Below, piece by piece: positions 1,020-30,837 of a DNA stretch of 64,000 bases (position 1 is its first letter; each line of letters begins with the position of its first letter). Made by a program: the position numbers and the translations under genes. Source of the stretch: Owenia fusiformis. Its lineage: Eukaryota; Annelida; Polychaeta; Sabellida; Oweniidae. The notes under the pieces were generated by a model, which was given only the letters and a program-made list of their open reading frames with translations, made no database searches and was not told the DNA's origin. The DNA lies in contig CAIIXF020000005.1 in NCBI GenBank assembly GCA_903813345.2, positions 11,723,375-11,787,374 of the forward strand. The letters are read 5' to 3'.

Positions 1020-4000
1020 CACTGGAAAGGGCAAATGCAATCTGTAGGCAAGCTGACATTATTGCAGCTTTAACTCTAGAGGTGTTAAAAGGAACAACAA
1101 AAGCATTTGACAGTGGTGAGTTTCATATTTTAACAATCAAACTTTAATAGAGAAAACCACCAAATGTCTCCCACACCTACCATGGCTGTAATTCAATACG
1201 TACAAGATGAAATATCAGCCCCTTTTGGAAAGGCTATTGGTGAATAAAATACAAACTGATTGATGCAACATCTTTCAATCAGCACTGTACATAGAGTACA
1301 TACAGATACATATAATTGAAGTATTATGTTGTAGATATTCATGCAGCAAGGCCCCATAAAGGCCAGATAGCTGTTGCCCAAAGATTCCGGGCTGTTCTAC
1401 ACTCTGATCAGCACCCCTCTGAGATTGCTAACAGCCACAGGTTCTGTAACAGAGTACAAGATGCCTACACTTTGAGGTGCTGTCCACAGGTTCGCTTATG
1501 TCTAATAATTTTTCTTGTTTTGTGTAGAGAAAGTTTCAGCTTGAAATTAGTTACCCGCCATTTTGTCTCTTGATCGACCCTATTCAATCGTTTTGGCTTA
1601 CATGGTGAGCCTTTAGAATTGTCCACTCATCTGTCCATCCACTACAATCATTATCCATTAACAATTCTCAGACAAAACTGCCATTTATCTGAACCACCAC
1701 ATACACATTGTATGAGGGTTGATACTGTTGTTCAGTGCCATTGGGCCTGGCTTTTACTTTTGCCTTGTTTTGGAGAAATTGGCAATTTTCACCATGTGAG
1801 CTCAACCAACCTCCGGGGGTTTCACTCCAATATACCTCTAAAGACCCCTTTTTTGGGGATTTTTTCCATGTCAATTTCCTCTAAAGATTGAAAGTTTCCA
1901 TGTATACTACCTCTCAGACTTATAAAAGGGAGTAAATTTCCTGAAATATTGGTATATTAACTACAAAATCTATGTTTTGGGTGATTTGTCCCAGACTTTG
2001 CCAACTGAATTTCCCGATTTATTACATTTTTGTAGAAAAACTAATTTTTGACTGAAAAAAGCTCTCTGACAAATTTTCCATGTTTTTTCCCTCTCAGATT
2101 GGCCAGGTTCCATGGTTTATGCCCTGAGCCAAAATTGCTCATGCTGCACATACCTACCCAAATTATTTAGAGTGAACTCCCCAGGAACCAACGCACCCAT
2201 GCACCCAATGGTACTATTTTTATGTCACCACCAAAAGTGTTGACATATTGTTATGGTCTCCGTTTTTGCGACGGTGGTTGGAGGTTGGCGTCCGGCATCT
2301 GTAACAATTTCTTACAACTTCCTATAACTTAACAAATACTGTTTAGATTGACTTCAATTTGTTTCCAAATCATCTACATGTTCTCAGAAGTTCAAATCTG
2401 ACTTTAGATTTGACATTTGACCTTCAATGACCTTCTCAAGGTCAAAAAGGTCTTTTTTCAAGTTGCTTCACATTGACTAAATTTTTTTTCAAAATCATCT
2501 ACATGTTCTCAGAAATTCAAATCTGACTTTAGATTTGACTTTAAATTTGACCTTCAAATCTGACTTTAGATTTGACATTTGACCTTCAATGACCTTCTCA
2601 AGGTCAAAAAGGTCAAAAAGGTCAAAAAGGTCTGTTTTCAACTTGCTTCAAATTGACTAAATTTTTTTTTCAAAATCATCTACGTGTTCTCAGAAATTCA
2701 AATCTGACTTAAGATTTGACATTTGACCTTCAATGACCTTCTCAAGGTCAAAAAAGGTCAAAAAGGTCTGTTTTCAACTTGCTTCAAATTGACTAAAAAA
2801 AATTTTCAAAATCATCTACGTGTTCTCAGAAATTCAAATCTGACTTTAGATTTGACTTAAGATTTGACATTTGACCTTCAATGACCTTCTCAAAGTCAAA
2901 AAAGGTCAAAAAGGTCTTTTTTCAACTTGCTTCAAATTGACTAATTGTTTTTTCAAAATCATCTACATGTTCTCAAAAATTCAAATCTGACTTTAGATTT
3001 GACATTTGACCTTCAATGACCTTCTCAATGTCAAAAAAGGTCAAAAAGGTATTTTTTCATCTTGCTTCAAATTGACTAAATTTTTTTTTCAAAATCATCT
3101 ACATGTTCTCAGAAATTCAAATATGACTTTAGATTTGACATTTGACCTTCAATGACCTTCTCAAGGTCAAAAAGGTCTTTTTTCAACTTGCTTCAAATTG
3201 ACTAATTTTTTTTTCAAAATCATCTACATGTTCTCAGAAATTCAAATCTGACTTTAGATTTGACATTTGACCTTTAATGACCTTCTCAAGGTCAAAAAAG
3301 GTCAAAAAGGTCTGTTTTCAACTTGCTTCAAATTGACCAAATTTTTTTTTCAAAATCATCTACATCTTTTCAGAAGTTCAAATTTGACTTTACAAGTTCT
3401 CAGAAGTTCAAATCTGACTTTAGATTTGACCTTTGACCTTCAATGACCTTTTCAAGGTCAAAAAGGTCTTTTTTCAACTTGCTTCAAATTTACTTAATTT
3501 TTTTTTCAAAATCATCTACATGTTCTCAGAAGTTCAAATCTGACTTTACATTTGACCTTCAATGACCTTCTCAATGTCAAAAAAAGTCAAAGAGGTATTT
3601 TTTCAACTTGCTTTAAATTGACCAAATTGTTTTAGGTGGTGACATTTTGTCATGTTAATGCCTTGTCTGTATAATGTAATACCATGAGGAAGAAATGTAT
3701 GACAATAGTACACACAAACATAATTATTGAATTCACATTGAAAATGGCCACTTGCTCACTTTGTTTTTATAGGTACATGGGGTTGTGGTGGACACTATAT
3801 CATTTGTAAAGACCCTTCTAACAACAGAGCTGAACAGTGGTACAGACAACCCTATGGTGTTTGCAGATCGTTCAGAGATCATATCTGGTGGCAACTTCCA
3901 TGGGGAGTACCCTGCCAAGGCCCTGGACTACCTGGCTATAGCAGTACATGAGCTTGCTAGTATCAGTGAGAGACGCTTAGATAGACTCATGAACCCAGGT

Positions 4001-29200: not shown

Positions 29201-30837
29201 ATGTCCACAATCACAAATTGTTTTAACACCAACTGTCTGTGTGGAGCAGCAGCTATTTATAATATAGTTCACGTTATTTTAATACATTGCACACATAAGT
29301 GTTAAGGTTTGATTGTTAGCATTACATGTGTTTTTGTTTTTATTGTATTGCACATAAAAAATCATATTTTACAATCCATTTTGCTGTTCCATATACATGT
29401 ACAGTACATTTCTCGCTAGTGAAACCTGTATAAGTGAAACAGCTTTGCACTTTTGAAAAGTATTCCACTTTGAGGTGTTCCATTTATAGAGGTGCTTCAT
29501 TTGAAAGTTTCACTGTACTTGGCAAGAAATGTGCCATAAATAGTGCAACTCCTGGATCAGTGATTCACCTACGCAGAGACATGTTTTATATGTCTCTGAC
29601 CTATGGTATTACATATTGAATCATTTTTCTATGTATTTGAAGAATGGGCAGCGACTAAAACCAAAACATGTACAATTATGCAGTATTCTTTACAAAACTA
29701 ATAGATAATATATAAAAAAAAATTAAAAAGTTGATATAAGACAGACATTTTACATTAGTATCAATCTTAATCTGTTTGTTTTCATTGTAGAAACTTTCAA
29801 CATGAATATCATATTCGGGAAAATTAATCTTCTTTTCATTTTGCAGTACTTTACAAATGTTAACGAATATAGAAAATAGACTTGAAGAGCTGTTTGAAAT
29901 GATAGAAATGATGCCCCCTGATAAAGTTGAGGCTGCTGAAAAGGTATAAAATCATTTTTCTTTTCTCACTCAAAGAAATTTTTAATCGAAAACATACAAT
30001 TTAAAAAAATACAGTAAATGTACATGTACCTTTAATTTTGGAAATTGTAATACGCTGTAGATGAATTCAGTCTTTTATAGAAATATGCTATTTGACATTG
30101 ATTGATATAATTGTTCAAGTATGTCTATGTGAGTGTAGTTTGTATGTAGTTTCTGCAAAGAAACCCAGTTAAAGTTATTAATTTGCAGAAAGTGTTGTCC
30201 GTATATGCATGCATTTAATGATCTTGTATACTATACATGTATGTTCAGAAAGTGAAGTTGGTATACAATACTAAAACTTGTATTATGTTTCAGTCTAAAG
30301 AGAAAGAGAGAAGACTGAAGTTGCGAGAGGAGAAAATGGAACAACAGAGGATCCACCAGGAAGAGAGGGTAAAGAGAGCCCTGGAAAGAGCAAAGGCTGA
30401 CCCCAAGAAAAAGGTAAAATCCACTTAATGAGATCGTCATATTTCCATATATTGAGAATATTTTAGCTGATATTTTTAACATTTCTTATTTTTTAACAAA
30501 TACTCACTTCTTATGAGAGGGAATGTAAATGATTGGAGTTGTTTCTACAGACATGACGCTAGTCATTAATTAGGTCAGAACTCCTGAGATCTGAAAAAAT
30601 CATCCTTATATGCATAAAATATTGCTGTTTCAAGTATCCCCATAGACCATTAGTTCTGGCTGCATAACAAGAGTATTTCATATGTAATTCTAGAAATCTG
30701 AAATGTATTTTTTCTATTTTCAGACTGGTCGTAGGCTGGTGGGGAGGTCTGAGCCCCCAAGACTTAAGAAGAAGGAAGATGACGGGGCTGACAAGGCCAG
30801 CAGAGAGGAGGAGGAACTGGCTTATTTCTTCACCTAA
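23217..30837 (+). CDS. CFAP100/CCDC38-family ciliary coiled-coil protein, complete (14 exons)
   Basis: Exons: 23217-23289, 24217-24297, 24554-24642, 25007-25190, 25598-25829, 25946-26102, 26438-26628, 26981-27050, 27322-27473, 27804-27902, 28324-28440, 29847-29943, 30294-30413 and 30724-30837. All are in phase, giving 591 residues. The N-terminus is polar ([12 protein letters not shown]), then comes the family hallmark [20 protein letters not shown] at about residues 55-75. A long charged coiled coil of DUF4200 type ([20 protein letters not shown] through [14 protein letters not shown]) covers about 145-270. A low-complexity linker, a second coiled coil and the tail [10 protein letters not shown] follow. 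Human CFAP100 (about 611) and CCDC38 (about 563) are similar in size. CFAP100 acts with CFAP73 in the axonemal inner-arm f/I1 regulatory complex (MIA complex in Chlamydomonas). Sequence alone does not tell me which vertebrate paralogue is closer; the AMDHD1 neighbour favours CCDC38 or a pre-duplication ancestor. Confidence 0.9.
23325..23700. repeat. Dispersed repeat (partner at 54815-55180, opposite orientation)
   Basis: The copy in intron 1 of the CFAP100-like gene shares TTTCAATTTTAGAATATTT, ATGGTTACCATTCTTATTAT, TTGGGAGATATTGTATTTGA and AGATCTGATTCTGCCTTTAA, in the same order, with the complement of 54815-55180. A third partial copy lies near 880-940. No coding capacity or clear ends. Confidence 0.75.
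26783..26945. mobile_element. Short relative of the GTCACCACC element family
   Basis: GAGGTGACATATTGTTATAG at the left and GGTGGTGATATTGTTCATGT, TTAATGCCTTG at the right match the edges of the element at 2221-3665. The interior is GGTGTTTGGTATCTGTAACA-like instead of the half-site array. It lies in the CFAP100-like intron 26629-26980. Confidence 0.6.
27254..27298 (+). repeat. Partial upstream duplicate of CFAP100-like exon 9
   Basis: The 45 bp from CAGCTTCTAGATACATTTGC to CAGAACTTGTCT repeat, with a few substitutions, the exon stretch at about 27352-27396 (encoding [15 protein letters not shown]), 98 bp upstream of it. In the exon's frame the copy would read [15 protein letters not shown] and then TAA. 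It has no obvious acceptor of its own and no donor. Confidence 0.85.
27555..27690. repeat. About 20-bp minisatellite
   Basis: Six to seven units of TATTGCCATTGTATTGTGC in the CFAP100-like intron 27474-27803. Open frames here (IAIVLCY repeats) are produced by the repeat. Confidence 0.9.
28093..28290. repeat. Copy of dispersed 'GTTCCACTT' MITE-like repeat
   Basis: ACTGTAAAACCTGTTTAAAT at the left is mirrored by GACAGTTTTTACAGT at the right; the interior has GTGTTCCACTAATGAAGGCG. It ends some 35 bp upstream of the exon at 28324. Confidence 0.7.
29415..29520. repeat. Short copy of dispersed 'GTTCCACTT' MITE-like repeat
   Basis: AGTGAAACCTGTATAAGTGA and AAAGTTTCACTGTAC are inverted ends; the interior has ATTCCACTTTGAGGTGTTCC. 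About 100 bp, apparently internally deleted. It lies in the CFAP100-like intron 28441-29846. Confidence 0.7.

What the first reader, a model, noticed from the sequence alone, without database searches (positions are those of the whole stretch)
1020..30837. Conserved block HAL - AMDHD1 - CFAP100/CCDC38 with human-like orientation
The sequence shows HAL (+) and AMDHD1 (-) tail to tail, then AMDHD1 (-) and a CFAP100/CCDC38-family gene (+) head to head. From memory, human 12q23.1 has CCDC38, AMDHD1 and HAL adjacent with the same relative orientations. If right, a histidine-catabolic pair and an unrelated ciliary gene have stayed linked from a lophotrochozoan to mammals. A shared bidirectional promoter between AMDHD1 and the ciliary gene could be the constraint. 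It would also suggest that CCDC38 kept the ancestral locus and CFAP100 is the moved paralogue.
Basis: partly seen in the sequence, partly recalled or inferred. Interest (0 to 1): 0.7.

Follow-up and report, generated by a model that had tools for sequence, protein, structure and literature searches.

The report
Ancient HAL–AMDHD1–CFAP100 gene neighbourhood
In this animal DNA two histidine-breakdown genes sit beside a cilium gene much as is remembered for mammals, most likely an inherited piece of very old animal gene order, and the two mammalian relatives of the cilium gene are probably both leftovers of that place rather than one having moved away.

Summary
HAL (+, 1020-12183, C-terminal half only), AMDHD1 (-, 22202-16041) and a CFAP100-type gene (+, 23217-30837) follow one another, tail to tail, then head to head (models; families). 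Corrections: HAL runs on to 12183, and an antisense DUF268 gene is nested in one of its introns.

In dog, HAL, AMDHD1 and CCDC38 are listed within the same 2.2-2.6 Mb intervals; chicken coordinates put AMDHD1 and HAL adjacent. Adjacency of CCDC38 and the mammalian orientations are only recalled. No other invertebrate could be examined.

The idea that CFAP100 moved away is not supported. A five-sequence tree cannot place CCDC38 (AU p 0.34-0.62 for all three topologies; its CCDC38 letters are from memory). But a SNP inside human CFAP100 lies about 30 kb from ZXDC, which in cattle and sheep maps with UROC1, the missing histidine gene, and with ALDH1L1, CHST13, SLC41A3 and TXNRD3. Their recalled paralogues lie on human 12q23. 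I therefore favour CCDC38 and CFAP100 as whole-genome-duplication copies of one gene. A shared promoter is possible (1,014 bp between predicted start codons), not shown.

The parts
1020..12183 (+). HAL (histidine ammonia-lyase), C-terminal half, 8 coding exons: 1020-1115, 1335-1489, 3773-3998, 4354-4440, 5444-5578, 11188-11296, 11712-11781, 12031-12183 (stop included); N-terminal half lies left of the window
   Evidence: splice joins and open frame; TIGR01225 E 6e-132; PDB 6v6h
6177..7431 (-). DUF268 gene nested antisense in the HAL intron 5579-11187; N-terminal exons with a hydrophobic stretch assigned by eye, the join to the main exon not resolved
   Evidence: PF03269 E 5.3e-20 for window:6177-7040; exon positions and one of two joins
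16041..22202 (-). AMDHD1 (imidazolonepropionase), 9 coding exons: 22202-22054, 20197-20091 (or from 20212), 19678-19614, 19236-19101, 18723-18582, 18163-17938, 17528-17310, 16773-16613, 16122-16041
   Evidence: TIGR01224 457.9 bits; PDB 2bb0 E 2.8e-61 for a hand-joined 321-aa query
22203..23216 (.). head-to-head interval between the predicted AMDHD1 and CFAP100 start codons, 1,014 bp; patch 22203-22602 with CpG o/e 1.25; candidate 5'UTR donor at 22541 and acceptor at 23194 for CFAP100
23217..30837 (+). CFAP100 (CCDC37/FAP100-type, DUF4200), 14 coding exons: 23217-23289, 24217-24297, 24554-24642, 25007-25190, 25598-25829, 25946-26102, 26438-26628, 26981-27050, 27322-27473, 27804-27902, 28324-28440, 29847-29943, 30294-30413, 30724-30837
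   Evidence: PF13863 E 2e-35; PDB human CFAP100 8j07 E 4.3e-120
36302..37404 (-). PPP4R2, two matched exons (right flank, outside the block); further acidic open frames down to 33699 are assigned by eye and matched nothing
   Evidence: PF09184 E 3.5e-23 (36302-36556) and 3.6e-10 (37195-37404); 33699-34487 no family
41895..43727 (+). single-exon BTB-BACK-Kelch gene (right flank)
   Evidence: PF00651, PF07707, PF01344
54407..55712 (-). IRAK4-like kinase, two matched exons (right flank); further frames at 61431, 62431 and 63520 were assigned by eye and matched nothing
   Evidence: hand-joined query, residues 79-179 of 179 match IRAK4 at E 1.2e-29; PF00069 on 54407-54637, no family for the other four frames

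Best explanation
This is an inherited stretch of old bilaterian gene order, HAL > < AMDHD1 < > CFAP100, not a new association. HAL and AMDHD1 encode steps 1 and 3 of histidine breakdown; the third gene encodes the axonemal coiled-coil protein CFAP100 (MIA complex). Shown: the genes, strands and open frames in the window; HAL, AMDHD1 and CCDC38 within 2.2-2.6 Mb in dog; AMDHD1-HAL adjacency in chicken; CFAP100 near ZXDC in human; ZXDC grouped with UROC1 in cattle and sheep. Recalled: CCDC38 directly beside AMDHD1 with these orientations in human. Inferred: before the vertebrate whole-genome duplications one CFAP100-type gene stood next to AMDHD1-HAL; afterwards one copy of the region kept HAL, AMDHD1 and the copy now called CCDC38 (human 12q23), the other kept CFAP100 near UROC1 (human 3q21). 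So neither gene moved. What holds the block together is unknown; most likely inertia, helped by the short AMDHD1-CFAP100 interval, in which a break would damage a promoter region.
For: Gene models and family assignment. Dog interval lists with CCDC38, AMDHD1, HAL and LTA4H. Chicken chr1 coordinates SNRPF, AMDHD1, HAL, LTA4H in sequence, AMDHD1 and HAL overlapping by 329 bp. A SNP inside human CFAP100 about 30 kb from ZXDC. ZXDC with UROC1, ALDH1L1, CHST13, SLC41A3, TXNRD3 in a 137.92-kb cattle QTL and among the flanking genes of one sheep SNP. The window protein has a shorter branch than CCDC38, FAP100 and the CFAP100 stem, compatible with a pre-duplication position; no topology is rejected. 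Blocks from the bilaterian ancestor largely kept in lophotrochozoans are an established class, 256 new blocks against 45-56 in shuffled genomes.
Against: No second invertebrate was examined. CCDC38-AMDHD1 adjacency in mammals is recalled; the dog lists show linkage only. The vertebrate ancestor inherited only 70 blocks, fewer than the 110-124 of shuffled genomes, so lophotrochozoan-vertebrate blocks as a class are not above chance there. Neither the cattle nor the sheep passages name CFAP100. The 12q23 paralogues (ALDH1L2, CHST11, SLC41A2, TXNRD1) are recalled; the pig passage only lists ALDH1L2 and TXNRD1 in one 14-Mb interval.
Confidence: 0.6

Rival explanations
1. Older duplication: CFAP100 and CCDC38 already existed as two genes, perhaps side by side, in the bilaterian ancestor. 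This lineage has CFAP100 at the locus and vertebrates kept CCDC38 there, with CFAP100 elsewhere.
For: Window protein is 48.3% identical to human CFAP100 and 38.4% to recalled CCDC38; 78 sites are shared with CFAP100 only, 28 with CCDC38 only, and at 24 CFAP100 and CCDC38 agree against the window. The topology with CCDC38 outside is marginally best in 3 of 4 runs.
Against: Differences are under 1 log unit and AU p is 0.34-0.62 for every topology; CCDC38 is a long branch, which pulls it towards the outgroup. Does not explain why the CFAP100 region holds UROC1 and genes with recalled paralogues on 12q23.
Confidence: 0.25
2. One reading: CCDC38 kept the ancestral locus and CFAP100 is a copy that moved to another place by a small-scale event.
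For: CCDC38 is the copy linked to HAL and AMDHD1 in dog.
Against: CFAP100's region (ZXDC in human; ZXDC with UROC1, ALDH1L1, CHST13, SLC41A3, TXNRD3 in cattle and sheep) looks like a duplicate of the recalled 12q23 region, with UROC1 the histidine gene missing from it.
Confidence: 0.08
3. Selection for a shared AMDHD1-CFAP100 promoter is the main force that keeps the block together.
For: 1,014 bp between predicted start codons, the shorter of the two gaps measured; one patch of high CpG o/e at 22203-22602, reached by 18 of 636 tiles; a donor at 22541 and an acceptor at 23194 would put a first CFAP100 exon near that patch.
Against: By raw CpG count the patch is reached by 116 of 636 tiles and the whole interval is ordinary (33 of 126 tiles as high in o/e). 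Donors that strong occur about 0.47 per kb and an antisense donor of similar strength lies at 22562. X-box-like sites are at chance level, 22 against 16.8 expected, 17 of 100 shuffles as many. HAL-AMDHD1 persists in chicken although CCDC38 is not named there, so this promoter cannot explain the HAL link.
Confidence: 0.15
4. Chance or independent re-association of the three genes in this lineage.
For: Only one invertebrate locus was available; shuffled genomes give 45-56 blocks where 256 are observed, and more than observed for the vertebrate ancestor (that method allows up to five intervening genes).
Against: Exact adjacency and orientation of three named genes has a chance near 2.5e-9 per genome (with the mammalian arrangement as recalled).
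Confidence: 0.03

Closest known systems
Bilaterian microsyntenic blocks (Robert et al. 2022, PMC8851819; passages and section 5 part 1 seen)
   Same: Three unrelated orthologues linked between a presumed lophotrochozoan and vertebrates; class of 256 blocks new in the bilaterian ancestor
   Different: Here strict adjacency and orientation appear kept, and vertebrates are said to have lost 84% of such blocks; whether this trio is in their lists could not be seen
Human 12q23.1 CCDC38-AMDHD1-HAL-LTA4H (order recalled; linkage in dog)
   Same: Same three families, same relative orientations as recalled
   Different: Third gene is the CCDC38 copy; SNRPF and NTN4 follow (recalled; SNRPF and NTN4 called nearby in PMC4006731 passages), here PPP4R2, a Kelch gene and an IRAK4-like gene follow
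Mammalian CFAP100-ZXDC-UROC1 region
   Same: CFAP100 near a histidine-catabolism gene, joined from human (CFAP100-ZXDC) and cattle/sheep (ZXDC-UROC1)
   Different: HAL and AMDHD1 not listed there; UROC1 not found in this window by a scan with recalled motifs
CFAP100/FAP100 (MIA complex) proteins
   Same: DUF4200, N-terminal NPF segment, YFxxPxQLL and C-terminal GxxLxxRSxPP segments shared with human and Chlamydomonas
   Different: No difference noticed that suggests another function

Membership tests
HAL (histidine ammonia-lyase) | Lyase fold, HAL rather than PAL-type sequence | tested here: met
   hutH TIGR01225 440.7 bits, phe_am_lyase 112 bits; partial protein, so below the whole-protein cut-off of 539.15
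HAL (histidine ammonia-lyase) | MIO-forming Ala-Ser-Gly triad | not testable with these tools
   encoded left of the window; motif not found inside
AMDHD1 / imidazolonepropionase | hutI equivalog score | tested here: met
   457.9 bits against 298.15
AMDHD1 / imidazolonepropionase | HxH metal motif | tested here: met
   DGHTHPVW on exon 19678-19614
CFAP100 | DUF4200 and closer to CFAP100 than to CFAP73 | tested here: met
   PF13863 E 2e-35; CFAP100/CCDC37 chains E 4.3e-120 to 3.2e-77, Chlamydomonas CFAP73 E 3.7e-07
CCDC38 | Groups with CCDC38 to the exclusion of CFAP100 | tested here: inconclusive
   AU p 0.34-0.43 for that topology over 4 runs, not rejected and never best; CCDC38 letters recalled
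Conserved microsyntenic block | Three or more orthologues linked in several phyla | tested here: inconclusive
   window plus dog interval lists; no other invertebrate; collection scans found no relatives
Bidirectional promoter pair | Transcription starts under 1 kb apart, opposite strands | not testable with these tools
   predicted start codons 1,014 bp apart; no transcript data

The most novel reading that the evidence does not exclude
Animals once carried a small histidine-breakdown cluster: HAL, AMDHD1, CFAP100 and UROC1 (perhaps with ALDH1L) stood together in the chordate or bilaterian ancestor. The vertebrate genome duplications split it by reciprocal loss into HAL-AMDHD1-CCDC38 (12q23) and CFAP100-UROC1-ALDH1L1 (3q21). 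The window shows one half of it unduplicated, with UROC1 expected beyond the left edge or on the same chromosome.
Probability: 0.4. Interest if true: 0.6.

Novelty: new member of a known kind. Interest (0 to 1): 0.42.

Why it matters
If the trio proves general in invertebrates it gives a precise, orientation-preserving gene-order marker across animals and dates CCDC38 and CFAP100 as duplicates of one ciliary gene. It would also explain why UROC1 is apart from HAL and AMDHD1 in mammals. CCDC38 has been tied to airflow obstruction (PMC4006731, abstract seen in the listing and passages), so knowing that it is a duplicate of an axonemal gene guides functional tests.

Tried and rejected
No assembly is held for the window, so UROC1, LTA4H and a second CFAP100/CCDC38 gene could not be sought in the same genome. 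Scans of genome contigs and viral contigs with the CFAP100 protein and with an alignment found no relative, as expected for collections without animals. X-box scan: no excess. CpG content over the whole 1-kb interval is ordinary; only the 400-bp patch stands out, and only in o/e. Human positions for CCDC38 and AMDHD1 variants could not be compared: the builds are not stated in the passages and seem to differ. Simakov et al. 2020 (PMC7269912) gave no usable passage. Paper searches for the trio or its synteny listed no paper that describes this block; that covers only the open-access library, and of their results I read passages only. I first thought DUF268 separated HAL from AMDHD1; the last HAL exons at 11188-12183 corrected this to a nested gene.
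Full report
What is in the window. I rebuilt the genes from open frames, splice-site scores and family matches. HAL on the + strand has eight coding exons in the window, from 1020 to the stop at 12183. The 342-residue model matches the hutH profile from position 207 to 497 of 506 at E 6e-132, so the window holds only the C-terminal half; the part that forms the MIO cofactor lies to the left and its motif is not found inside. AMDHD1 on the - strand has nine coding exons from a predicted ATG at 22202 to the stop at 16041, 428 residues, hutI score 457.9 bits against a cut-off of 298.15. 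The HTH metal motif sits on a 65-bp exon that I first missed. The third gene, 23217-30837 on the + strand, has fourteen coding exons and 591 residues, with a DUF4200 domain at E 2e-35. A few joins use weak acceptors (1335, 11188, 26438), and the two start codons are predicted: the profile or chain matches begin about 45 residues (AMDHD1) and about 60 residues (CFAP100) further in.

HAL and AMDHD1 are true neighbours, but the picture needed a correction. A DUF268 gene (E 5.3e-20) on the - strand at about 6177-7431 seemed to separate them. The last three HAL exons lie beyond it, so it is nested, antisense, inside one HAL intron. The gap between the HAL and AMDHD1 stop codons is 3,857 bp and the gap between the AMDHD1 and CFAP100 start codons is 1,014 bp.

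Which paralogue is the third gene. A first, approximate 576-residue model matched human CFAP100 (8j07) at E 4.3e-120, entry 9fqr (named CCDC37) at 1.5e-116, Chlamydomonas FAP100 at 3.2e-77 and Chlamydomonas CFAP73 at only 3.7e-07 (the species of the 8j07 and 8glv entries are recalled). No CCDC38 chain appeared among the eight sequences listed up to E 1. CCDC38, CFAP100, CFAP73 and CCDC42 are described as paralogues in PMC6702985 (passages). That is one check, not proof. The window protein is 48.3% identical to human CFAP100, 48.9% to 9fqr, 41.0% to Chlamydomonas FAP100 and 38.4% to recalled CCDC38. In a five-sequence maximum-likelihood test, with two model choices and two alignments, all three placements of CCDC38 fit within one log unit; AU p runs from 0.34 to 0.62. 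The placement with CCDC38 outside window plus CFAP100 is marginally best in three of the four runs. The tree neither proves nor refutes a vertebrate origin of the pair. By sequence I call the window gene CFAP100-type, possibly co-orthologous to CFAP100 and CCDC38.

Gene order elsewhere. No animal genome is in the collections that I could scan; four scans with CFAP100 queries gave no relative. From papers: a dog interval at 35.5-37.7 Mb of chromosome 15 lists AMDHD1, CCDC38, CDK17, ELK3, HAL, LTA4H, NEDD1 and NTN4 with four unnamed genes (PMC6834583 passages), and an interval at 35.23-37.84 Mb lists VEZT, METAP2, USP44, NTN4, AMDHD1, HAL, LTA4H, ELK3, CDK17, CFAP54, NEDD1 and CCDC38 (PMC12684936 passage). 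These lists show linkage, not adjacency. Chicken coordinates put SNRPF at 45665323-45666646, AMDHD1 at 45669067-45679558, HAL at 45679230-45694836 and LTA4H at 45703687-45718329 (PMC6339939 passages). AMDHD1 and HAL thus overlap by 329 bp and 2.4 kb separate SNRPF from AMDHD1; CCDC38 is not named in that paper. A cattle interval list gives NTN4, SNRPF, AMDHD1 and LTA4H (PMC7010604 passage). I saw no strands in any of these passages; the human order with CCDC38 next to AMDHD1, and the orientations, are recalled.

The CFAP100 side. A SNP in an intron of human CFAP100 lies about 30 kb from ZXDC on chromosome 3 (PMC5634485 passages). A 137.92-kb cattle QTL holds ALDH1L1, CHST13, C22H3orf22, SLC41A3, TXNRD3, UROC1 and ZXDC (PMC10464233 passages), and the flanking genes of one sheep SNP are CHCHD6, TXNRD3, CHST13, UROC1, SLC41A3, ALDH1L1, ZXDC, C19H3orf22 and two unnamed ones (PMC12267044 passage; the heading of the next table gives plus or minus 100 kb). 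Neither of these two papers names CFAP100, so the CFAP100-UROC1 link is joined across species. UROC1 is urocanase, the step between HAL and AMDHD1. From memory, ALDH1L2, CHST11, SLC41A2 and TXNRD1 lie on human 12q23; a pig list names ALDH1L2 and TXNRD1 side by side, with IRAK4 in the same 14-Mb interval (PMC3432624 passage). If the recalled map is right, 3q21 and 12q23 are duplicated regions, CFAP100 and CCDC38 are their two copies, and neither has moved. The right flank of the window points the same way but only by recall: PPP4R2 (human 3p13) and IRAK4 (12q12).

The shared-promoter idea. The AMDHD1-CFAP100 interval is the shorter of the two gaps measured. Its first 400 bp next to AMDHD1 has CpG observed/expected 1.25, reached by 18 of 636 tiles, though by raw CpG count 116 of 636 tiles do as well; the region next to the CFAP100 ATG has 0.39. 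The interval as a whole is ordinary (33 of 126 tiles as high). An acceptor at 23194 just before that ATG and a donor at 22541 (score 9.1) would allow a noncoding first CFAP100 exon near the patch. Against this, donors of that strength occur about once per 2 kb, an antisense donor of similar strength lies at 22562, and X-box-like sites across the window are at chance level (22 found, 16.8 expected). It remains a prediction, and it could not explain why HAL stays beside AMDHD1.

Context and verdict. Ancient blocks of this sort are an established class: Robert et al. 2022 report 256 blocks new in the bilaterian ancestor against 45, 48 or 56 in shuffled genomes, largely kept in lophotrochozoans, with 84% lost in vertebrates; the vertebrate ancestor inherited 70 blocks, fewer than the 110-124 found in shuffled genomes (PMC8851819, section 5 part 1). 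I could not see whether this trio is in their lists. I judge the observation confirmed, the interpretation partly supported, and the find a new member of a known kind. The most interesting open reading is an ancestral histidine-breakdown cluster that included UROC1 and was split by the vertebrate duplications.

Noticed in passing
6177-7431 (-): DUF268 gene with an N-terminal hydrophobic stretch (by eye) nested antisense inside a HAL intron.
   Followed up: partly
11037-11291: 102-bp tandem duplication (97% matches over 11037-11249) that copies an acceptor context and the 5' part of a HAL exon; only the last copy continues into the rest of the exon.
   Followed up: partly
27249-27298: 50-bp copy of part of the next CFAP100 exon, 45 of 50 bases alike, followed by a stop in frame: a decayed partial exon duplication.
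   Followed up: partly
2561-3633, 13472-14344, 27556-27680: Minisatellites: 136/261-bp units in a HAL intron, 162-bp units in the HAL-AMDHD1 gap, 21-bp units in a CFAP100 intron.
   Followed up: no
3763-3776, 19443-19456 and 62172-62185: The three places with an exact match to the recalled X-box consensus: at a HAL intron-exon border, in an AMDHD1 intron, and at the right end; the overall count is at chance level.
   Followed up: no
33699-63804: Right flank: PPP4R2 (-), BTB-Kelch (+), IRAK4-like (-); human PPP4R2 and IRAK4 are recalled on 3p13 and 12q12, again the chromosome 3/12 pair.
   Followed up: partly
59830-60114 (-): Open frame with the HIDNAPAH motif, recalled as typical of mariner transposases.
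   Followed up: no
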